A program made the translations under genes and the position numbers. The notes beneath the pieces were generated by a model. The model saw only the letters and a program-made list of their open reading frames with translations, searched no databases and was not told the origin of the DNA. DNA of 64,000 nucleotides from Cystobasidium ongulense (lineage: Eukaryota > Basidiomycota > Cystobasidiomycetes > Cystobasidiales > Cystobasidiaceae): positions 1,922,001 to 1,986,000 of the forward strand of contig BQUP01000001.1 in the NCBI GenBank assembly GCA_022835595.1. The letters are read 5' to 3'. Below are positions 18,072 through 55,828 of the stretch, in pieces. Positions within the stretch are counted from its first letter, which is position 1. Every line of letters starts with the position of its first letter.

Positions 18072-18803
18072 ATGAAAATTCTCTCAATAGCTTTGATTGG
18101 TGAGCTTTCGTTTCGAGCGCAAGTCTGCGTCTTGTTCTTGCTGACGTAGCGGTGTGGGTGCTAGGTCGTCAGAATCAACCGCTCTTTATAAGGTCCTATG
18201 GCCGACCAAACGCAACTGCCGAGGAGGATCTGAAATGGCATTTTGTCGCACATACTAGTTTGGATGTATTCGAAGAGCGAGGTGCGTTCCATAATTATCA
18301 GGAAGTAGCTGTTGTCTTGCGAATTAGGGTTGATTGAGGACGGACTTGCCGTTTGCAGAGGCGTCTGGTGTTCGTCAGAACGACCATTATGCCGGTCTTC
18401 TGCAAGTGATGGACGATTATGCTGTGTGAGTATTTGAAGTTTGACTGTGCTCTTAAACTTGCTCACGCCTCTCACATGCCTTGCAGATATGGCTATCAGA
18501 CCAGCACACGCGTCAAGATTGTTCTCACTCTCGCATTGACCGAAGAGACTGTCAAAGACAACGATATTAAGACAGTATGTTAAGAGTCCAGCACATTGTC
18601 ATGCAGAGAACTAATGCAGTATGCATCCTCAGATCTTTAAAGCCATTCATAATGCTTATATCGCACACCTCAGCAATCCATTCAATGATTCCTGCGGGGA
18701 AGGAGCGCCTGATTTTGTAGCTCCGCCTATACAAAGTCAGAAGTTCGAGCAGAAGCTCCGCAATATCGCATTAGCGCAAGATGCCGATACGCCAAGGACA
18801 TGA
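18072..18803 (+). CDS. TCA17: TRAPP complex subunit Tca17 / TRAPPC2L
   Basis: A small longin-fold subunit associated with TRAPP II, the exchange factor acting on Rab GTPases at the Golgi. Five exons. The start at 18072 gives MKILSIALI, spliced through GTGAGC to AVWVLGRQNQPLFIRSYG, then DLKWHFVAHTSLDVFEER. After an intron come ASGVRQNDHYAGLLQVMDDY, YGYQTSTRVKIVLTLAL with VKDNDIKT, and finally IFKAIHNAYIAHLSNPFND. These match, in order, the conserved blocks of human TRAPPC2L (FHYMVHTSLDVV, YGYVTNSKVKFV, NEIRSMFRKLHNSY, NPF). The C-terminal extension after NPFND is longer than in the human protein and looks disordered. Sedlin/Trs20 is the nearest relative, but the LKWHFVAHTSLDV phrase favours the TRAPPC2L branch. 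Confidence 0.9.
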
Positions 18804-19425
18804 TGATTCATACAGCTTTGGCCTACATCGCAGCAAGCCCAAGTTCACACCTATGCCATACAGTGGCTTTCGTTACACTGCCGCCTGGTGAGTCCATACA
18901 CGTATCAAAGTTCCGGACTTCGTCTTCTTCCATCCCCTCTTCACCGCCGGACAATGACGCGCCTTCTAGAGACTAGTGGAGATGCAGCGACAGATACCTG
19001 GCGAAGATTGAAATTACATTCTTCTCTTGGGAAGATCCGAGAGTCTCTCATAACCCGCCTTGACTTTCACTAGCAAGGAGCGTGGTTGTGAGATAAGGCA
19101 TGATCCGGATCTCGTACATTCTACTCCTCCATACTTCCGTTTCCGGTTTCTACGATTCATCGTCAGAAAATGGTACTGACTTTTGGGCCTCGTCATCTCG
19201 ACAAATCAGTCTCTCAAGGCATCAATACTAGAAGATCCATTTCACCCAGATACAAGTCGGTGAAATAGCTTCGCTGGTACAAGGCGATACGCACAAGGAG
19301 AAGAACGTCCATACGCGTACCGTACGGGCAGGATTCAGTGGCTTTAGATCTACAGTAAGCTTGCTTCTTCTCATTGCTTCCGGCACAGCGACACATCACA
19401 ATCCCTCCCTCCACTCCTCTATCGA

Positions 19426-19549
19426 ATGATGAATGTTATGTTGGCACCAGTCTCTAGTAGCTCTGTTCCATACGGAAAGAGCTATTATGAAGAGTCATAA
19501 CCCCGGCATTGTTTCTTAACAACAATATATACGCTATGCAATGTCCTGA
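19426..19549 (+). ncRNA. Structured C/D-box-like RNA, copy 1 of 3
   Basis: Begins with a C-box-like ATGATGA and ends with a D-box-like CTGA. Helix P1 pairs GTTATG (19435-19440) with CATAAC (19496-19501). Inside it, P2 pairs TAGCTCT (19458-19464) with AGAGCTA (19478-19484), capped by TTCC/GGAA around the loop ATAC. P3 pairs GGCATTG (19505-19511) with CAATGTC (19539-19545), directly abutting the D box. TCGA lies on both outer flanks and could close the terminal stem. The copies also spell a 24-codon frame ending YYEES, but the substitutions follow pairing rather than codons. I could not assign a known snoRNA or a guide target. Confidence 0.72.
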
Positions 19550-19810
19550 AATTCGAATCCATCCTCCCTGTCTACCTTCCAAGTCGAGATTGTGTACATT
19601 TCAAAGCTTACACCCCTCGCAGTACTTTCAGCCTCCTGGTCCTCGCAGAATCGCACAGCATTGCTTGCTCAACTTCCAAATGGTTCAAGCCCTCTGCTCT
19701 CGCTAGAAATGTTCGTCATGACAAGCACTTCGCTGTTCCAATCGGTAAGTCCTTGTTCATTCAGACAAACCCTACTCCACAAATCACTACAATACCCTCC
19801 TCGATCTCGA

Positions 19811-19934
19811 ATGATGAATGTTATGTTGGCACCAGTCTCTAGTAGCTCTGTCTCATACGAGAGGGGCTATTATGAAGAGTCATAACCTCGGCACTGTTCT
19901 TTAACAACAATATATACGCTATGCAGTGTCCTGA
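19811..19934 (+). ncRNA. Structured C/D-box-like RNA, copy 2 of 3
   Basis: Same 124-nt length and same terminal ATGATGA and CTGA as copy 1. Substitutions preserve pairing: the P2 tip becomes TCTC/GAGA, and P3 becomes GGCACTG/CAGTGTC, a T-A to C-G double change. The lower part of P2 pairs TAGCTCT with GGGGCTA through G-U pairs. The flanks carry TCGA on both sides. It sits 66 nt after a GTAAGT donor. Confidence 0.72.
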
Positions 19935-20176
19935 ACTTTCGAAACCACTCCTTCCTAAACCCACTCTGAATTCTTTACAATCAAAGGCTTACTCATATCA
20001 AACTGCTTTTAGACTATTGTCTCAGCAGCGACCACAGTCCTGCTCGTACAACTGCTACAGCAGTCAAGCTCCCGGCTCTTAGATCCTGTCGTCGAGATAA
20101 GATATTGTATGCCGCTTCAACTCGTGAGCTTTTACTTTTTCCTCCTCACAAATCATCACATCTCCCTTTCCATCAA

Positions 20177-20300
20177 ATGATGAATGTTATGTTGGCACCA
20201 GTCTCTAGTAGCTCTGTTCTAAACGGAAGGGGCTATTATGAAGAGTCATAACCTCGACATTGTTTCTTAACAACAATATATACGCTATGCAATGTCCTGA
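20177..20300 (+). ncRNA. Structured C/D-box-like RNA, copy 3 of 3
   Basis: Again 124 nt with ATGATGA and CTGA at the ends. The P2 tip is TTCT/GGAA (one G-U pair, loop AAAC), and P3 is GACATTG/CAATGTC, where the G-U pair of copy 1 has become A-U. The outer flanks lack the TCGA pair seen in copies 1 and 2, so the terminal stem is weaker here. It sits 53 nt after a GTGAGC donor. Confidence 0.7.
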
Positions 20301-20563
20301 AATACCCTATCACCTCCTGCTCCCACCGCGCCCATGGTCACGAAGCGGACATATATTGACTACCTCTTCTTACCTCTAGGCGTGGCCATGCTTAGTATGT
20401 TCTGCAAAACTACAAAAGCCTTTGTCTCCTGCCTAAATTCTGCATTCGTGCATAAAATACATGAGAATGGAAACGGGAGGTTGGAAATTGCACATATACA
20501 ACGACTTCACTGCTGGGTCAAATACGGCATACTGGACACGAACAATTGTACATTAATGCTATG

Positions 20564-21644
20564 CTAGTTACCACAAGCAGTGGGACACGCATCTGCCTCA
20601 GAAGGGACCGGTATATGGACCAGATCTGTATCGAATAGCTCGATGAACTGCACAATTGTTCCTTGATTAGCTATGTAATGGATGATACCTGTTAGGACCA
20701 AAAAGGGGACGCACCTGTTCATTTAAGACTCGTACTTTGGCACCTGCATGCCGCCTGTACTCTTCAAATATGCTGGCCAAGTTCCACCGTTGCAGCTTCC
20801 GCAGACAGCCTATAACCGTCCCGGTTCGATGTCTTCCTAGATTGCACATGACCATCAGAGGATATGAGGAGGGTTGTAGGATGATGTCCCTGTTGAGAGG
20901 CGATGTCAGTACGGTGTTAGAAGTCCATTCATAATACCAAGGCGTACAATGCTTTCACAACGACCTCTTCTGTGATGGGGTCCCATGCATTTGTAGCTTG
21001 CAGCACTCCAAGATGATGTAGCTGGATATGATCCTCGCGCAGGAAGTCTAGACTGCAAGCGGGCAGGGAGTGTAGTGGTATCAGTACAAGGTGCTGCCTG
21101 TAAAAGTGAAGTACTTGTTAAGACGTGCTCATCGCCACACACTCACAATCGTTGATGTGGTTCTTCAGGTGCGAGCCATATCAAGCTCCGCAAGCCTAAG
21201 CGTTGAAGGAATGGAAAATTGAACTCCGTAGGTTGTCCCTGTGATGAGAATTGCGAGTCAGCCATAGCTGTGGGACGAGGTTGCAGATACTAGTGAGGAC
21301 ACTACTGTGCTTACACTTCTATACAGGCCATCTTCAACGATAGCAAAGTTCTCAGGCGGTATCAAGACGCTAGTTTTCGTGAATTTGTTCTGTTTCCTCA
21401 ATTGAGACTGCCGCCGTTCATTCAGATCTTGAGCTGCTGCGTCCTGTTGCTCTTCGGACGTTTTGCCCGTTTGTAGCATGTTCACATCGTCTGCTTCTGT
21501 TTCTTTGCCGTCCATTGTCACTGCGAGTCCATCCAACTTCATTCGAGTAGTTGTAGAGGATGTGCTGTTGCTGTTGCTTGTGCCATTGTTGCTTTGTTGT
21601 GCGGCGGTAGATGTAGAGGCTCCGACGTCGTTCCCATTCTCCAT
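20564..21644 (-). CDS. OCA6: Atypical dual-specificity phosphatase, Oca1/Oca6/Siw14 family
   Basis: PFA-DSP family; members cleave inositol pyrophosphates or act in oxidative-stress and TOR-linked signalling. A Thr/Ser/Asn-rich N-terminus (from the Met at 21644, MENGNDVG) leads to the conserved entry LIPPENFAIVEDGLYRS, then GQPTEFNFPFLQRL, LIWLAPEEPHQR, CLDFLREDHIQLHHLGVLQA and the active-site P-loop CNLGRHRTG (Cys-X5-Arg). It then runs GCLRKLQRWNLASIFEEYRR and, after a last intron, FIELFDTDLVHIP to a stop at 20564. The catalytic Cys and Arg are intact, so it should be active. Oca6 is the best branch because of GCLRKLQ...FEEYRR, but Oca1 or Siw14 cannot be excluded. An upstream Met at 21749 is in frame; starting there would leave only 50 bp to the divergent gene. 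Confidence 0.82.
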
Positions 21645-22959: not shown

Positions 22960-25464
22960 ATGGCCGCCGAAGACCCGAATGCGATGGCTCTCGTCTACAA
23001 CGACCCTTCAAACATGCAGCTCGCCGGCACATCCAGCCAGGCATTGACGACCATACCACCTGCTGGCGGACGAGCCTCGAGCAACCCTGCGTCTGGCCTG
23101 AAGAATGTGCCTGCTTTTCTCAACAAGCTGTACAGGTGAGCCTTGGCTTTGTTGATGCTTGCTCGTGTCGGCAATTGCTGAAAGCTGAGATATACTATGA
23201 TCGTTCATCCATACACAACCATTCTGCAGCATGGTCAGCGACCCAGCGACGAACCACCTCATCAGATGGACAGACGACGGTACCAGCTTCATAGTCCCCT
23301 CGTCAGAAAAGTTTGGCAGAGAGCTCCTGCCTCGCTTCTTTAAGCACTCAAACTTTGGGTCATTTGTTCGTCAACTCAACATGTACGGCTTCCACAAGGT
23401 GCCACATCTACAACAAGGTGTACTCAAGCTGGACGACGATGATGAAAAGGAGAAAGCGGAGATACTCGAATTTCAAAACGACAATTTTCAGCGTGATCAA
23501 CCGGATCTACTCTATCTCATCCAGCGGAAAAAGGGCGTCTCAACTGTAAATGCAGGTCGAACAGGGAGCGAAGACCCAGATGGCAAAGCAAGCACACCCA
23601 CAGCAGGACCCTCGTCATCTTCCTCGTCAGGAATGAGCATCTCGAAATTGCAGGCGGATCTAGGACATATCCTGACAGAGGTACAAGCAATCAAACGACA
23701 CCAAGCTATACTTTCATCAGATCTACGAGAACTACAAGGGACGAACCGCTCACTTTGGCAGGAAAACATGGAACAAAGAGTGAAACACGACAACAATGCT
23801 GAAATGATTGATAAGATCTTGAAATTCTTGGCGGGTGTTTTCGGTGGAAGGGCTCTGAGCGAAGGAGCGAGTTTCATGAGCGGGCATAATATCGCTGCCG
23901 CCGATAGTTCGTCTGGCTTGGGGCTTGGTTCGTACGGCCAAGGTCGACCCAATGCCACCAAGGGAACGGGAGAGACAACAAATAGTACCGCAGCACCGCA
24001 ACATCCACCGACGAATGGTTTTGATCTGGTACCCCCTCACAAGCGGCCTCAGCGACTCTTGCTGCAAGGTTCGCCAGACAAGCAGACTACGGCATACGAT
24101 AGCGGTAATGCAGAAGACGATTTACTCATGAGTCAATTCGAGGAGCTTGGCTCGGACGATGAGATGCAGTCAGGCAGGAAGAATGGCAGGGGAACGAAAT
24201 CATCTAGTGAAGGATCACCCAGGTCGACTGATTCGTCACGCTTCAACGAGATCAAGAGTACGAGCGTCGATCCAGCAGCTCCTGCTAATGCACCAGCGCC
24301 GACCGGTAATCTGGACGTTAGCAGCTTGATCAACAATGATAATATTGACTGGGCAAGCATCAATGCTATCTTGAACAACACAAATCTTAGCCAAGCCAGC
24401 ACCAATCAAGCTGCCACCAATGCATCTAACGGGACTGCCAATCCTTTACAACAACCTAACTTCGACTACAGCAACACGGACTTTTCAAACTTCGACTTTT
24501 CCAATGCGGGTGTGTTTGGCATGCCCAGTACTTCCTCTTATGCAAACAATGCTGCCACCAATACCAATGGCCAATACTCTGTCACTCCATATACTGCATC
24601 GCCGAACAAGCCCGCAACCAACACGACAGAAGCGCCTTCTTCGTATTCTCTTGCTTTGGCTCCTACAATTCCCTCTTTCGCTCCCACAACAAACAATAAC
24701 AACAACAGCCAAGCAATCACAAAATATGGCGATGCATTGACGCATGTCAGTGATGAAAATGCTAAAATTAAAGAGAGAATGGATAGCCTCAGCTCGGCTA
24801 TCGATAGATTAGTTGCAAACTTACCTGAAGGATTTAGTTTTACCCAACCCCCTTCTGATACCTCGAAAAACGGACAAACGTCCGTCAGCAACACTTATGA
24901 TGATGAGTTTGACTTTTCACAGTACCGTGAGCATCATTCTTGGCACTGCTCTTAATCAGGAAATCAGGAAATACTGACTGGGATGTGTGAAATTTTGCTC
25001 ATTCAGTCAATCCGTCCAGCGTGGATGTGGATGCAGAGGACCTCAGCAATGTATCGCAGACATCACAGCCGCAGATGCAAGATCCCCTCTATTCCTATCT
25101 AGATCCCACACTAGGAGGGACAAGTCTTGGCTCGGGTGACCCCAGCCTAGGCGGCGGTGCTATACCACTATCATCGTCCGACCCGCTCGCCTCCATCCCT
25201 CAGACACATCAATTGGCCAGCTCAACGCCACAGGGTGTTCCAGCTAGTAGCCTGGATGTAGAAAATGCAGTCAAGCAAGAACCCGCCCCTTCTCCGATAT
25301 CCTTCACGGAGGATGCCTCACTTGCTTCAAAGGCAGCTAAAATACCCTCCAAGACGCCAGCGCGGAGTAGCAAAAGACGTCTATCTACGACAGGCAATCA
25401 GTCAGTTGAGCCCGTTTCTGACACGCAAAGAAGATCAACGCGGCAGAAAACAGGCAGAGCATAA
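22960..25464 (+). CDS. HSF1: Heat shock transcription factor HSF1
   Basis: A trimeric nuclear activator that binds nGAAn repeats. Exon 1 (22960 to about 23135) reads MAAEDPNAMALVYNDPSN and ends PAFLNKLYR. After a roughly 95-nt intron comes the rest of the winged-helix domain: MVSDPATNHLIRWTDDGTSF, FKHSNFGSFVRQLNMYGFHK (recognition helix) and FQRDQPDLLYLIQRKKG. A heptad region follows (ISKLQADLGHILTEVQAIKR, then LSSDLRELQGTNRSLWQENM), the trimerisation coiled coil. The rest is Asn/Ser/Thr-rich, with several aromatic DF/NF motifs (NFDYSNTDFSNFDFSN) of an activation domain. A final exon (about 25008-25464) begins LNPSSVDVDAEDLSNVS and ends in a basic RSTRQKTGRA. The DNA-binding domain begins near residue 50. 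Confidence 0.96.
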
Positions 25465-49969: not shown

Positions 49970-52691
49970 ATGCCCAACTCGAAAGCAGCGGTGACCTTTG
50001 TAGGCGAGAAGATCCTGCGCATCCCGTTTGAAGACAGCAAGGAAGACTACTCGGCCCGCGTTACAAGGGGAGAGTCTATCGCATCCGCCCATCAAGCTAA
50101 TGCCTACATCGACCACGAAGCATCCGTCAAAGACTGGCTGAAAGATCAGGCGCCAAGCAAGGGAGATGTCGCTAACTTCCTCAAGTCGCTGTTCCCCTTC
50201 ACCGAGTGGCTCCCTCGATACAACGTACAATGGTTGATTGGTGATCTCGTCGCCGGCATTACCGTTGGTGCGGTTGTAGTACCTCAGAGTAAGCCTCGTA
50301 CAATCGTATTATGCCTTCTCGCCCTCACTAATGCTCGTATACACCCAGGTATGGCATACGCTAAGCTCGCGCAGCTACCCGTGCAATTCGGTCTCTATTC
50401 GTCCTTCGTCGGAGTAATGCTCTACTGGTTCTTCGCCACCTCAAAGGATATCACCATTGGTCCCGTAGCCGTCATGTCTCTACTCGTAGGAGACATTGTC
50501 GACGAAGCAAAAGAAAAAGCACCAGAATTTGCAGGACATGTCGTAGCCTCCGCATTAGCCGTTATCGTCGGAGGAATCGTATTCGGTTTAGGTCTTCTAA
50601 GACTAGGTTTTGTAGTCGATTTTATCCCTCTACCTGCTATCGCGGCATTCATGACTGGATCAGCTATCAATATTGCAGTAGGTCAAGTACCAGCAATGAT
50701 GGGTATCACAGGTTTCTCAACTCGTGAAGCACCATACAAAGTTTTCATCAATATTCTCAAACATCTTGGAAGATCAGATATCAACGCCGCAATGGGAGTA
50801 TCTGCTCTGGCAATGTTATATATAATCAGAGGTGCTTGCAACTATATGGCTAGAAGACAACCTCAAAGACAGAAAATGTGGTTCTTCATTTCTACTCTCC
50901 GAACTGCTTTCGTCATCCTACTCTATACGATGATCAGTTGGTTAGTGAACATGCACAGGAGAAGCACCCCACGTTTCTCTATTATCAAGGACGTTCCAAG
51001 AGGCTTCCAGAATATGGTAAGCTGAAGCTTCTTTTCTTAGCCGAACCACACACTGATTCGAGCATCTTTCTTCTCAATCCAGGGCGTTCCTGTCATCGAC
51101 TCTGAGATCATCAGCGCTTTCGCTGGCAACATCCCTGTATCAGTCATCGTACTACTGATTGAGCACATCGCTATCAGGCAAGTTGATGTGGCAGACTGCT
51201 TGCGCTCCTCCTTCTAATTAGCTAATCCGCCACTCTCTTTAGTAAATCGTTTGGACGTGTCAACAACTATACCATTAATCCCTCACAAGAATTGATTGCC
51301 ATCGGTATCACCAATGTGAGTTCCTCAGTCCGAGGCTTCTGTTCCGTTAGCAAGTTGTATTGTTCTGATCTGTCTGTTTTCTCAATTCAGATCTTCGGTG
51401 CCTTCTTCGGTGGTTATCCTGCAACCGGTTCATTCTCTCGAACAGCCATTAAGTCAAAAGCTGGTGTACGCACACCTCTTGCTGGTGTGATTACCGGTAT
51501 TGTCGTTCTCCTAGCTATCTACCTCCTCAAAGCCGTCTTTTATTACATTCCCAATGCCTCCCTCTCCGCCGTTATCATCCACGCTGTCGGAGATCTCATC
51601 ACCGCACCTAAAACAGTTTACTCTTTCTGGCGTATTTCACCACTGGAAGTCATTATCTTCTTCGCTGGTGTCATAGTTGCCGTCTTCACAACCATCGAAA
51701 TCGGTATCTACACGACTGTAGCTGCTTCTGGAGCTCTCTTATTGTGGAGAACTGCCAAAGCAGACGGAGAATTCTTGGGTAGACTCAGGGTGCAATCTCT
51801 AGCTGCTGATGGACTCACCGAAAGCGTCTACCTCCCAATCGATAGAGGTGACGGTTCCAACCCTGAAATTCCAGTCGAAGAGCCCGCACCTGGTATCTTT
51901 ATCTTCAGATTCTCGGCTTCATTCCTCTACCCCAACGCAACACATGTTACAGATCAGCTAGCTCAATATGTATTATCCGCTACGAAACGCACCAATCCTG
52001 CCACATATGGCAAACTCGGAGATAGACCTTGGAATATGCCTGGTCCACGCAAGATTGATCCGGAAGCCGCAATGAAGGACCCAAGACCTACACTCAAAGC
52101 TATCATTGTCGATTTTTCAGCAGTCCGAAATATCGATATTACCTCAACTCAAGTATTAGTAGATGTTAGAAAACAGTTAGATAGACATGCTTCTCCGGAT
52201 GAAGTTGAATGGCACTTCGCTCATGTCAACTCGCCTTGGACTAGAAGAGCTCTCACATCAGCCGGATTTGGTAGAGCTTCGGCTAAAGGAAGAGCTGTGT
52301 TCAGTGTTGCTGAAGTTGGAGAATCTGTTGGTGGTTTCTCAGCTGGTAAAGATCAAGCGGAAAGAGCAAAAGCTGGATCTGCACCCGATGATATTGATTT
52401 TGCTGAAGCTGGAGCGGAACCTGTCGCTGCTAATTCAAAAGGTGTTCGCTTACCTGTCTTGTCTACCGATTATCCGTGAGTCCTCATTAAACGTTTTCAC
52501 CTGTCTTTACTAAGGCTGGCAACTAACTTCAAATATCGCTCTTCATTAGTGCTTTCCACCTGACAATCGATGAGGCACTCACATCAACACTTCATTCGCT
52601 GGGCATGGATGCAACAACTATCTCACCTCCATCTTCTTCTGCAAATAGTAGCTATGGAAAGGAAAAGAATCCAGAAGTTTCGGAATATTAG
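49970..52691 (+). CDS. SulP family sulfate permease with STAS domain
   Basis: Plasma-membrane sulfate uptake. Start 49970 (MPNSKAAVTFVGEKILRIPF). Membrane part: FPFTEWLPRYNVQWLIGDLV, the SulP signature AGITVGAVVVPQ continued after an intron by GMAYAKLAQLPVQFGLYSSF, then SKDITIGPVAVMSLLVGDIV, GLLRLGFVVDFIPLPAIAAF and MTGSAINIAVGQVPAMMGI. Later exons include EHIAI..SKSFGRVNNYTINPSQE, IFGAFFGGYPATGSFSRTAI and IYTTVAASGALLLW. The cytosolic STAS domain holds PGIFIFRFSASFLYPNATHV and AIIVDFSAVRNIDITSTQVL. The last exon ends KEKNPEVSEY at 52691. Two stretches, 50450-50880 and 52100-52470, are AT-rich relative to the rest of the gene. About 830 residues, normal for fungal SUL1/SUL2-type proteins. Confidence 0.94.
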
Positions 52692-53046: not shown

Positions 53047-55828
53047 TCAGACTGATTCGACACTGTCTGGCCTATACAGCCCGCTCATCCCGAACGGGAG
53101 CTCCTCCTCCGGCACCGACCGATCGTCAACTCCATCTTCATAGGCAAATGCTTCATACGCTTCTTTGTAGTTCGTCTGGCCGATGTCGAGATCAATATTG
53201 AAGCAAACGAAAGTTGCATCGATTCTGTCAGCGACCAATACGGGCGGGGGAAGTGGAAGCATGAGTACAGAAAAAGCTGTCTGTAAGAAGGTTAAAACAC
53301 TTACGCGTTACTAAGAAGGTCACTTGAGAAGCGTACAGTCCAGAAGGGAACTATCCCGCAAACGAAGGCCACGAGAAGTGGTGTGAGTACAGTGACCTCT
53401 CTGGCATCGGAATCTGGGAATGTAGCTGGTGCCGAGAGCCAGTACACAGACGAGAGGTAGCCTGCCAACCCTCCTAGGATCGCAAGAGCGAACGAAAAGA
53501 TCGAAAGGAGCGATCTTATCATGAGATCTATCATAACAATGGAAGATCAGTAGCTCGTACCGATGCAAGCGCGTTGGCAGTGAATAACTTACGGCTAGCT
53601 ACCATATCAGTTCCATTTCTGCCCATTATGAGATCCGCCGCCTCTCCAGAAGCATCCCAGAATCGATCTCCGGTAATAGCGGAATGTACAAGAGTGAAGG
53701 CGTTGAGGTTCCGTATCAGCCCACTCAATATCGCAATAAGCGGTAGTATGACAAAATTGACGACTATTCGAACAGCAGTGGCCGCGAGATTGGGTCCAGT
53801 CCATCTCCGGGAGCGATTGACCAGAGAATAAGACAGTGATATGAGGAGTGTGAAGAGGGACAAAACAGCTAAAATAAGCGAGGAAGCACATAGCGTGCCT
53901 ATGGACGGTCCTATAGCTCTGTGAAAGGCATCCAGAACGTTCTGCTGTGCTTGTAGCATGGTAATCTTCGGTTTCTGAGCTTCTATTGCTGTTTTGTTGT
54001 CGTTATCGTGTTTGTCGTTTGCCCGTGTACTGCTCTTGCTGAGCTTATCGTTGTACCACCAGCTACCGACCGTACCTGCGATGGTATGCTGATAGATAGC
54101 TCGTAACAATGCCAGTGTCCAAAAGTACACTAAAGCCGTATGAAGAGACAGTACGATCGACCAAGTACTTGGTATCAAGTAGGTGTAACTGTCTTTCGCT
54201 GTCGCGTCTAGACTCTGTTTGATTGTACCATGATACAGCAGCTGAGCAATTATGAGGATTGCTGGAACGCTCGAGATGATGTAGGCTCCAATCAGCGCAA
54301 CAGCCAGCAATATGAGTTGAGGATGTTGTATGACAACTTCAGCTGCGGCCTGAAGTACTCGGATAGTTCGCTCTAGCCTTGCTCGGCGAGAACTCGATCC
54401 AGATGAGAACAGTGTCTGCCACGATCTTCGAAACGCAAGTCCCGAACAAGCTAGTAGGCACATGCTTGTGATTCTTAATGTCGTCTGAGCCCAACTGGAA
54501 GCAGCCTGCACGCCATCTGAGGCCCCAAATTCGAGCGCAAAGGAAGCTTCGAATGCCCAGCCTGAGCCAAGTAGGAATATGATAGGAGGTGCCAGAACGA
54601 AGACAAAAGCTGCTTGACGCGCTCCATTCTTTACGAGAAGCGTATATGCTAAGGTCGAGGTAGTAATAAGCAGAGAAGCAAGGACTAGTAGGGAGAGGAG
54701 AGGTATAGAACGTAGGATCGCCATAGAAGGTGCTATAAGGTGGGTCGAGGATGGTATCCGCGTAGAGTCGAAAAGGAACAGATAAAGGGAAAGAAAGATA
54801 GTGAATAGGGCGTTGAAGAGGTATATCGCCAGCCATGCGGGATCTCGGTATGATTGATCCTGCCACTCCATATCTGGGGCTGCGAGAGATGTGTCGTTGG
54901 CCCCACTTGCAACGCAACGATAGCGAGACGTAGGCATAGGGTATCGATGTACGCGTGGTTGATGTATGGTATCATTGACTGGGGTTGTACGATGGGGCTC
55001 TAGTCTCGAGGGGTCATGTTCGGCTCGCTGCTTGGACGCATGCTGGTGAAGTGGCAAAGCAAGAGGCCGAGCGCCCGTCAAGTACGTCGGAGGTTGGCTA
55101 GGGGACTTGGAAGTCATTTGATCGTTGAATAGGTGGCTATAATCATCCTCCGTAGCCCTCTGCTTGCCTTTGTCCGACTTCTTGCCTATAAAGACAGAGC
55201 TGTAAACCGACTCCGACTGCTCGTATAGATTGTGCAGCACCGACTGCTTCACGCCAGGCAGGAGATTCGTAGCATGCATTCTCCAACCTACGTTCGAGGC
55301 AGACTGCTGTTTCTGCTTCCTTGACGGCGCTGGAGATGTTGCAACAGACTGGCGGCTGCGTGTGCCGTGCGAGCGGAATGGGTCATTGGACTCGTCAGAC
55401 CCGACCTCGCTGGGTGACCTGCCCAGTCCGTCGTGGCTGTATGGGTCATCATCAACCTGAATAGACGATGCATCCATGCCTGTTGTATCGTCGCCGGGTT
55501 CATGCTGGAGCTGCAGACCGTCTCTTGCCTGATGTGGCTGATGCTGACGATAAGCGTCGTGGCGTTGTAGTAGTCCAGCGTGAGTAGAACTGTTGCTGCT
55601 GCTTGCTGGATGGCCTCTCATGATATCATTCTCGACGTAGTCTTCATCATGGTAGTAGTACCTGCTTCTGCCAACTTCCTCGTCGTCGTCCACTTCCGCG
55701 GCACTCTCACCATCAACTGTGCTGAAGAACAGCGGCGCCTGATCCACACCATCGCGTCCTCCACCACCGCCGAATGGTGCAAAGGTGCTGGCGAGGAATT
55801 GGCTTGCTGACCGGGGATAGGCGCTCAT
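53047..55828 (-). CDS. PNS1: Choline transporter-like protein, Pns1/CTL family
   Basis: Multi-pass protein of the CTL (SLC44) family; the fission yeast relative Ctl1 acts in autophagy membrane traffic. A roughly 310-residue disordered N-terminus rich in Ser, His, Gln and Asp (start 55828, MSAYPRSASQFLASTFAPFG) precedes the membrane part. TM segments include PAWLAIYLFNALFTIFLSLY, IPLLSLLVLASLLITTSTLA, AAFVFVLAPPIIFLLGSGWA, LILLAVALIGAYIISSVPAI and LPLIAILSGLIRNLNAFTLV. Family blocks are the loop GTVGSWWYNDKL, then ALRAIYQHTIAGTVGSWWY, and the late DATFVCFNIDLDIGQ, the CTL 'CFxxD' region. Exon 2 (about 53534-53301) holds LLSIFSFALAILGGLAGYLS. The substrate is unproven; S. cerevisiae Pns1 is not a proven choline carrier. 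Confidence 0.85.

What the first reader, a model, noticed from the sequence alone, without database searches (positions are those of the whole stretch)
19426..20300. Three tandem copies of a structured C/D-box-like RNA with compensatory base changes
Copies at 19426-19549, 19811-19934 and 20177-20300 are each exactly 124 nt, start ATGATGA and end CTGA. Two helices covary. P3 reads GGCATTG/CAATGTC, GGCACTG/CAGTGTC and GACATTG/CAATGTC. The P2 tip reads TTCC/GGAA, TCTC/GAGA and TTCT/GGAA. Double changes that keep pairing in recent paralogues are hard to explain by protein coding or chance. The long internal helices leave little free guide sequence, unlike an ordinary methylation guide, so this may be a specialised or unknown small RNA class.
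Basis: partly seen in the sequence, partly recalled or inferred. Interest (0 to 1): 0.9.

Follow-up and report, generated by a model that had tools for sequence, protein, structure and literature searches.

The report
Triple intronic snoRNA targeting 18S rRNA
Three near-identical small nucleolar RNAs, each in its own predicted intron of one apparently non-coding gene, carry a known type of antisense guide for a conserved spot in the small-subunit ribosomal RNA, plus a structured second half that may grip the neighbouring stretch of the same rRNA.

Summary
In detail: three 124-nt copies (19426-19549, 19811-19934, 20177-20300, + strand) run from box C AUGAUGA to box D CUGA; all 27 helix pairs form in all three, with three two-sided changes. 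Each copy sits at nearly the same place in its own predicted 268-273 nt intron; copies are 91-95% identical, flanks 27-38%.

An unknown class is not supported. An exposed guide, UGUUGGCACCAG, before a degenerate D' box pairs (12 bp, one G-U) with 18S 559-570 (yeast numbering). By the D'+5 rule it addresses G562, methylated by yeast snR40. Rfam Afu_190 shares the guide (match below cut-off) and Neurospora CD43 is annotated for the equivalent site. Best read as a member of the 18S-Gm562 guide group of box C/D snoRNAs.

Unusual is the 3' half: helix P3 takes the place of the D guide, and its loop is antisense to 18S ~592-616, beside the guide site, suggesting accessory pairing or a chaperone role. 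This is statistically suggestive only; no relatives could be fetched. Expression, methylation and taxon are untested.

The parts
19355..19622 (+). predicted intron 1 (GTAAGC ... CTTAC ... CAG) holding copy 1; a second AG at 19631 is possible
   Evidence: splice signals; RNA starts 71 nt from the donor and ends 61 nt before the branch A
19426..19549 (+). copy 1 of the 124-nt box C/D RNA
   Evidence: Rfam Afu_190 21.1 bits, below its cut-off of 35
19426..19432 (+). box C AUGAUGA (copy 1)
   Evidence: sequence; invariant in 3 of 3 copies
19439..19450 (+). guide A, UGUUGGCACCAG, antisense to 18S 559-570 (copy 1; copy 2 at 19824-19835, copy 3 at 20190-20201)
   Evidence: -22.1 kcal/mol; on the whole 18S 1 of 2000 mononucleotide and 91 of 2000 dinucleotide shuffles as good
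19452..19455 (+). putative degenerate D' box CUCU, in the register of CUGA in the snR40 consensus
   Evidence: alignment
19456..19486 (+). P2 hairpin between D' and C' (13 pairs, two of them with two-sided changes)
19487..19493 (+). putative C' box AUGAAGA (6 of 7 match AUGAUGA)
   Evidence: sequence
19435..19501 (+). P1: GUUAUG 19435-19440 with CAUAAC 19496-19501; never varies
19505..19545 (+). P3 hairpin: 19505-19512 with 19538-19545, directly before box D; one two-sided change
   Evidence: pair probabilities 0.60-0.99 over the three copies
19515..19537 (+). element B in the P3 loop, CUUAACAACAAUAUAUACGCUAU in copies 1 and 3 (copy 2 has U for the first C), antisense to 18S about 592-616 (copy 2 at 19900-19922, copy 3 at 20266-20288)
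   Evidence: positions 91-112 of the RNA invariant in 3 of 3 copies
19546..19549 (+). box D CUGA (copy 1)
   Evidence: sequence; invariant in 3 of 3 copies
19745..20012 (+). predicted intron 2 (GTAAGT ... GGCTTAC ... TTTTAG) holding copy 2
19811..19934 (+). copy 2
20107..20379 (+). predicted intron 3 (GTATGC, alternative donor at 20124; TTCTTAC; CTCTAG) holding copy 3
20177..20300 (+). copy 3 (weakest terminal stem)

Best explanation
These are three copies of an intron-encoded box C/D snoRNA of the 18S-Gm562 guide group (yeast numbering). Inferred route: the host transcript is spliced, the 124-nt snoRNP is trimmed from each intron, guide A pairs with 18S 559-570 in the 530-loop region, and fibrillarin methylates the G equivalent to yeast G562, five nucleotides before the D' position. 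Internal helices P1 and P2 present the guide and form the C'/D' module. P3 replaces the D guide and displays a second antisense loop (element B) that may pair with 18S ~592-616 just downstream, raising efficiency or holding this region open during 18S folding. Shown by sequence: boxes, splice signals, helices, complementarity to yeast 18S. Inferred: expression, methylation, accessory pairing.
For: Boxes C and D canonical and invariant; one RNA per predicted intron at matching distances; conservation stops near the RNA's ends; for copy 1 Rfam Afu_190 is the best family, the match resting on box C plus GGCACCAGUC; 12-bp guide to 18S 559-570, z -4.36 for the 25-mer around it; yeast Gm562 is lost in the snr40 deletion (PMC5199042, passages); N. 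crassa CD43, intronic, 96 nt, is annotated to 18S-Gm559 by its D' guide (PMC2780460, Table 1), which equals yeast 562 by the offset of 3 seen around it (Um575/578, Am538/541, Cm411/414). Element B: 11 contiguous Watson-Crick pairs starting 21 nt beyond the guide duplex on 18S, in the P3 loop (unpaired probability 0.93-0.98), with duplexes of -19.8, -20.4 and -19.8 kcal/mol in copies 1, 2 and 3.
Against: No Rfam family reaches its cut-off, the whole-window scan at E up to 2 lists no snoRNA, and for copy 3 SNORD74 scores a little higher (18.3 bits, cut-off 41) than Afu_190 (17.6). In the snR40 consensus itself the guide pairs better with the Gm1271 site than with the Gm562 site. The D' box CUCU lacks the GA of CUGA; mutating the last A of the D' box in a yeast U18 construct abolished or severely reduced methylation (PMC5389607, passages), so the guide may not methylate, as reported for snR190. 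Copy 3 has no clear terminal stem and those of copies 1 and 2 are short. Element B is only suggestive: 15 and 7 of 2000 shuffles match it on the whole 18S, an ungapped scan of the whole 3' half gives 212 of 2000, an unrelated stretch of the same RNA (61-85 against 18S ~1533) scores z -3.09 and a lower raw energy, and the 11-nt target is exact in only 8 of 16 eukaryotic 18S seen. Yeast 18S 1350-1361 is a rival 12-pair site for the guide, with two G-U. The organism's own rRNA was not available, and no fungal homologue sequence could be fetched.
Confidence: 0.75

Rival explanations
1. A non-modifying chaperone snoRNA, working as yeast snR190 does: it binds 18S on both sides of helix 18 and delays its folding, without methylating.
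For: Degenerate D' box; two antisense stretches to one rRNA region; internal stems. snR190 has two antisense boxes, diverged C'/D' boxes, a possible internal stem and no detected methylation (PMC8536666, passages).
Against: Guide A is in the exact register for a known methylated site, which a pure chaperone would not need. Support for element B is modest.
Confidence: 0.25
2. A bipartite guide for a base modification such as acetylation, working as snR4, snR45 or U13 do.
For: Bipartite 18S complementarity, a non-canonical D' in most of these snoRNAs and a helical region between D' and C' are described for snR4/snR45 (PMC5464676, passages).
Against: The two duplexes are 21 nt apart on 18S, not around one looped-out cytidine; the guide sits on a methylation site; the yeast table lists ac4C only at 1280 and 1773 of 18S.
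Confidence: 0.05
3. Inactive copies: snoRNA-derived repeats inserted in introns, conserved only because they are young.
For: Sharp edges near the RNA ends would also follow from insertion of a mature RNA; copy 3 has a weak terminal stem.
Against: Changes are concentrated in stems (10 of 14 variable positions) and keep 27/27 pairs in all copies; the three sit at the same place in three similar introns with intact splice signals.
Confidence: 0.06
4. Protein-coding repeat (the 24-codon frame).
For: A 24-codon frame from ATG is open in all three copies.
Against: 3-4 non-synonymous against 0-1 synonymous codon changes per pair of copies; conservation continues past the stop to box D.
Confidence: 0.01

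Closest known systems
Neurospora crassa CD43 / S. pombe snR80 (18S-Gm559, equal to S. cerevisiae Gm562)
   Same: Intronic box C/D snoRNA with a D' guide to the same nucleotide (PMC2780460 Table 1).
Rfam Afu_190 (RF01498, A. fumigatus)
   Same: Box C and guide GCUGGCACCAG, 11 perfect pairs with 18S 559-569.
   Different: 100 model positions; match of 21.1 bits is below the gathering score of 35; none of the six best antisense stretches of its consensus lies at 18S 592-616.
S. cerevisiae snR40
   Same: D' guide with GCACCAGU before CUGA, required for Gm562.
   Different: snR40 also serves 18S Gm1271 and 25S Um898 and has a CUGA D' box; the Rfam match is 11.6 bits against 50.
S. cerevisiae snR190
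   Same: Works-like rival: internal stem, two antisense boxes, diverged C'/D'.
   Different: Targets 25S, not 18S; the number in Afu_190 is, as I recall, a clone number and not a link to snR190.
snR4 / snR45 / U13
   Same: Bipartite 18S pairing, non-canonical D', helix between D' and C'.
   Different: Guide acetylation; their two duplexes flank one cytidine.

Membership tests
Box C/D snoRNA | box C RUGAUGA and box D CUGA near the ends | tested here: met
   AUGAUGA and CUGA in 3 of 3 copies
Box C/D snoRNA | terminal stem closing the C/D motif | tested here: inconclusive
   4-bp TCGA/TCGA near the ends of copies 1 and 2, none clear in copy 3; copies 2 and 3 fail the stem rule
Box C/D snoRNA | guide of 10 or more bp to rRNA, D/D'+5 on a methylated nucleotide | tested here: met
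   12 pairs, one G-U, to 18S 559-570; fifth nucleotide before the D' position pairs with G562; yeast 18S used as stand-in
Box C/D snoRNA | canonical D' and C' boxes | tested here: not met
   CUCU instead of CUGA; AUGAAGA 6 of 7. Internal boxes are often imperfect (recalled; also for snR4/snR45), so this does not exclude membership
Box C/D snoRNA | binds Snu13, Nop56, Nop58, fibrillarin; stable small RNA | not testable with these tools
   needs RNA and pull-down data
18S-Gm562 guide group (snR40, CD43/snR80, Afu_190) | guide core GCACCAG in the D' register | tested here: met
   alignments to the Afu_190 and snR40 consensus; CD43 sequence not seen
18S-Gm562 guide group (snR40, CD43/snR80, Afu_190) | methylation of the G562 equivalent in this organism | not testable with these tools
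   no RNA data
Rfam Afu_190 (RF01498) | score at or above the gathering cut-off of 35 bits | tested here: not met
   21.1, 14.1 and 17.6 bits for copies 1, 2 and 3
snR190 | antisense to 25S helix 73 and to domain I of 25S | not tested
   of fungal 25S only the first 400 nt were at hand; the guide is explained by 18S

The most novel reading that the evidence does not exclude
A two-handed 18S snoRNA: one loop pairs with the 530-loop region, a second loop, shown off by a covarying hairpin that has replaced the D guide, pairs with the strand just downstream, so that the RNA spans helix 18 and times its folding, in the manner of chaperone snoRNAs such as U14 or snR190; three intron copies supply the dose.
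Probability: 0.3. Interest if true: 0.6.

Novelty: new member of a known kind. Interest (0 to 1): 0.35.

Why it matters
It gives a target to a structured RNA that misses every Rfam cut-off and so would go unannotated by that route, and shows a probable Gm562 guide with an unusual 3' half. If element B is real, it would be a testable case of one snoRNA both modifying and bridging the decoding-centre side of 18S.

Tried and rejected
Rejected: homology to yeast snR190 (first suggested by the name Afu_190; snR190 targets 25S). A canonical D guide before box D: that strand is P3, and copy 2 changes it (A to G, five nucleotides before box D) together with its partner, as a stem does and a conserved guide does not. 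Coding frame. Further copies in the window. Other C/D candidates: a simple box and stem scan gave 6 rows besides copy 1; copies 2 and 3 fail its stem rule, so it is insensitive, and none of the 6 was pursued.

Led nowhere: three patterns for homologues in viral contigs gave 0 hits, as did the 18S pattern there. No whole genome is held for the window. Paper searches: Afu-190 with snoRNA, 0 papers; G562 with 18S and snoRNA, 0; snR40 or G562, 137 papers, 25 listed, most unrelated; SNORD103 with 18S, 3, none opened; Gm562 with snoRNA, 3; snR80 with pombe and 18S, 1; Aspergillus fumigatus with snoRNA and tRNA cleavage, 22, six listed, none opened. The fungal snoRNA survey by Canzler and colleagues (PMC5824354) is not held and may already list this RNA.

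Full report
Observation. The three copies are at the stated places, each 124 nt, box C AUGAUGA to box D CUGA. They differ at 14 of 124 positions in all, 10 of them among the 54 paired positions. With P1 (6 pairs), P2 (13) and P3 (8), 81 of 81 cells are standard pairs; three pairs show changes on both sides, four on one side, twenty never vary. Sliding one strand by 1 to 3 columns lowers pairing to 39.5-54.3%, though the +2 slide still shows two two-sided pairs; 13 of 500 column shuffles reach the observed values. Random placement of the same number of changes rarely keeps all pairs (163 of 20,000 for copy 1 against 2; 1,506 for 1 against 3; 188 for 2 against 3). With three sequences this is good but not overwhelming evidence; P1 has no covariation support at all, and folding energies are only mildly low (z -2.19, -1.27, -0.99).

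Setting. Each copy lies in its own predicted intron: 19355-19622, 19745-20012 and 20107-20379, lengths 268, 268 and 273, with GTAAG or GTATG donors, CTTAC branch sites and AG acceptors; the RNA starts 66-71 nt after the donor and ends 57-72 nt before the branch A. Alternatives exist (acceptor 19631, donor 20124). In eight splice combinations with arbitrary outer ends the longest ORF of the joined exons is 105 aa; the two inner exons are open in two of three frames, so coding is not strictly excluded. Non-coding hosts are described for fungal snoRNA clusters (PMC3596301, one section; PMC2780460, passages). Flanks of the copies are 27-38% identical without gaps, the 8 nt next to the unit 38-75%, the RNA 91-95%: the copies are not fresh blocks of DNA, and the RNA is what is kept. 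Insertion of mature RNA is an alternative reason for the sharp edges.

Identity. No Rfam family reaches its cut-off in the window, and the whole-window scan at E up to 2 lists no snoRNA. In the 2.2-kb region the weak matches are Afu_190 for copies 1, 3 and 2 (21.1, 17.6, 14.1 bits; E 0.21, 1.4, 9.2) and SNORD74 for copy 3 (18.3 bits, cut-off 41). With copy 1 alone (145 nt) Afu_190 has E 0.014, then DdR13 and snR40 follow at 11.6 bits, E 3 and 3.8. The part shared with Afu_190 is box C and GGCACCAGUC. In the yeast 18S carried by contaminant contig L012, UGUUGGCACCAG pairs with 559-570 (12 pairs, one G-U), and the Afu_190 consensus with 559-569 (11 perfect). In the register of the snR40 alignment, where CUGA stands opposite CUCU, the fifth nucleotide upstream pairs with G562. 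G562 is ribose-methylated in yeast and lost in the snr40 deletion (PMC5199042, passages; PMC5344495, passages), and an snR40-18S hybrid around Gm562 is reported (PMC5464676, passages). In the snR40 consensus the same guide pairs better with 1269-1279, its Gm1271 site. N. crassa CD43, 96 nt and intronic, with S. pombe homologue snR80, is listed for 18S-Gm559 through its D' guide (PMC2780460, section 3 part 1 with Table 1); neighbouring sites run 3 lower than in yeast, so 559 is 562. Hence the RNA is best placed with this guide group.

How good is the guide? Mononucleotide shuffles of the 12-mer do as well on the whole 18S in 1 of 2000; dinucleotide shuffles in 91 of 2000, a poor null for so short a word. 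An ungapped scan of the 5' half gives 30 of 2000 shuffles as good on the whole 18S and 1 of 2000 near the site. Of 21 sampled 25-mers along the RNA, one over the guide has the lowest z (-4.36, 0 of 300). A rival yeast site at 1350-1361 has 12 pairs with two G-U; I recall that region as variable but did not test it. The doubtful point is the D' box: CUCU has no GA, and mutating the last A of D' hurt activity in a U18 construct (PMC5389607, passages). Methylation is therefore likely but unproven.

The 3' half. Copy 2 changes the nucleotide five before box D together with its P3 partner, so this strand acts as stem, not guide. The P3 loop, largely unpaired (0.93-0.98), carries CUUAACAACAAUAUAUACGCUAU (copy 2 starts with U). 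Its last 11 nt pair perfectly with 18S 592-602 and the 5' part with about 607-616; -19.8, -20.4 and -19.8 kcal/mol for copies 1, 2 and 3, reversed-sequence controls -11.7 to -12.6. Against 18S 501-662, 0 of 3000 mono- and 3 of 3000 dinucleotide shuffles do as well; against the whole 18S, 15 and 7 of 2000. The near region was chosen after seeing the match. In 15 of 16 eukaryotic contigs the region around this 18S site gives the loop a lower energy than any tile scanned elsewhere on the contig (L006 is the exception; margins are under 1.5 kcal/mol in L001, L010 and L015; tiles overlapping the site were left out, these 18S are related, and little LSU was available). The exact 11-nt target is present in 8 of the 16, so it is not universal, and the organism's own 18S is unknown. 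Also against it: the stretch 61-85 has a lower raw energy (-26.7) and z -3.09 at 18S ~1533, where the P3 loop has z -3.06, so a z near -3 may be noise; and an ungapped scan of the whole 3' half gives 212 of 2000 shuffles as good on the whole 18S and 22 of 2000 near the guide site. I hold element B at roughly even odds.

Mechanism. Most likely a methylation guide with accessory pairing, a known principle (extra base-pairing: PMC5389607, abstract and passages; PMC8522698, one passage). In one of its cases, U18, the extra pairing made no difference. The rival is a chaperone without methylation, like snR190 (PMC8536666, outline and passages; PMC8994135, passages). Also seen: PMC8216456 (passages; structural RNAs in fungi, its four snoRNA candidates being H/ACA) and PMC5040776 (passages; seven Rfam snoRNAs in Pleurotus, none named Afu_190 or snR40).

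Limits. The taxon was not established; yeast 18S stands in for the organism's own; no homologue sequences, no expression data.

Noticed in passing
window 19778-19798 and 20147-20167: A 21-nt direct repeat at 76% identity upstream of copies 2 and 3, the only other repeat family of 14 nt or more that one search listed in 18500-21500.
   Followed up: no
window 23231-24955: ORF with an HSF-type DNA-binding domain (Pfam E 3.2e-31).
   Followed up: no
window 49970-52479: Two ORFs that match the first and last parts of a sulfate permease, the second with a STAS domain; perhaps one gene split by an intron.
   Followed up: no
window 53531-55828, minus strand: Choline-transporter-like protein (Pfam E 7.1e-35).
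   Followed up: no
L001-L016: Sixteen contigs filed as bacterial genomes in the genome collection carry a eukaryotic 18S rDNA pattern, one of them (L012, filed as Planomonospora) apparently baker's yeast rDNA.
   Followed up: partly
window 19486-19510 (copy 1 positions 61-85): Unexplained duplex energy with 18S around 1533 (-26.7 kcal/mol, z -3.09), overlapping C' and P1; probably chance.
   Followed up: no
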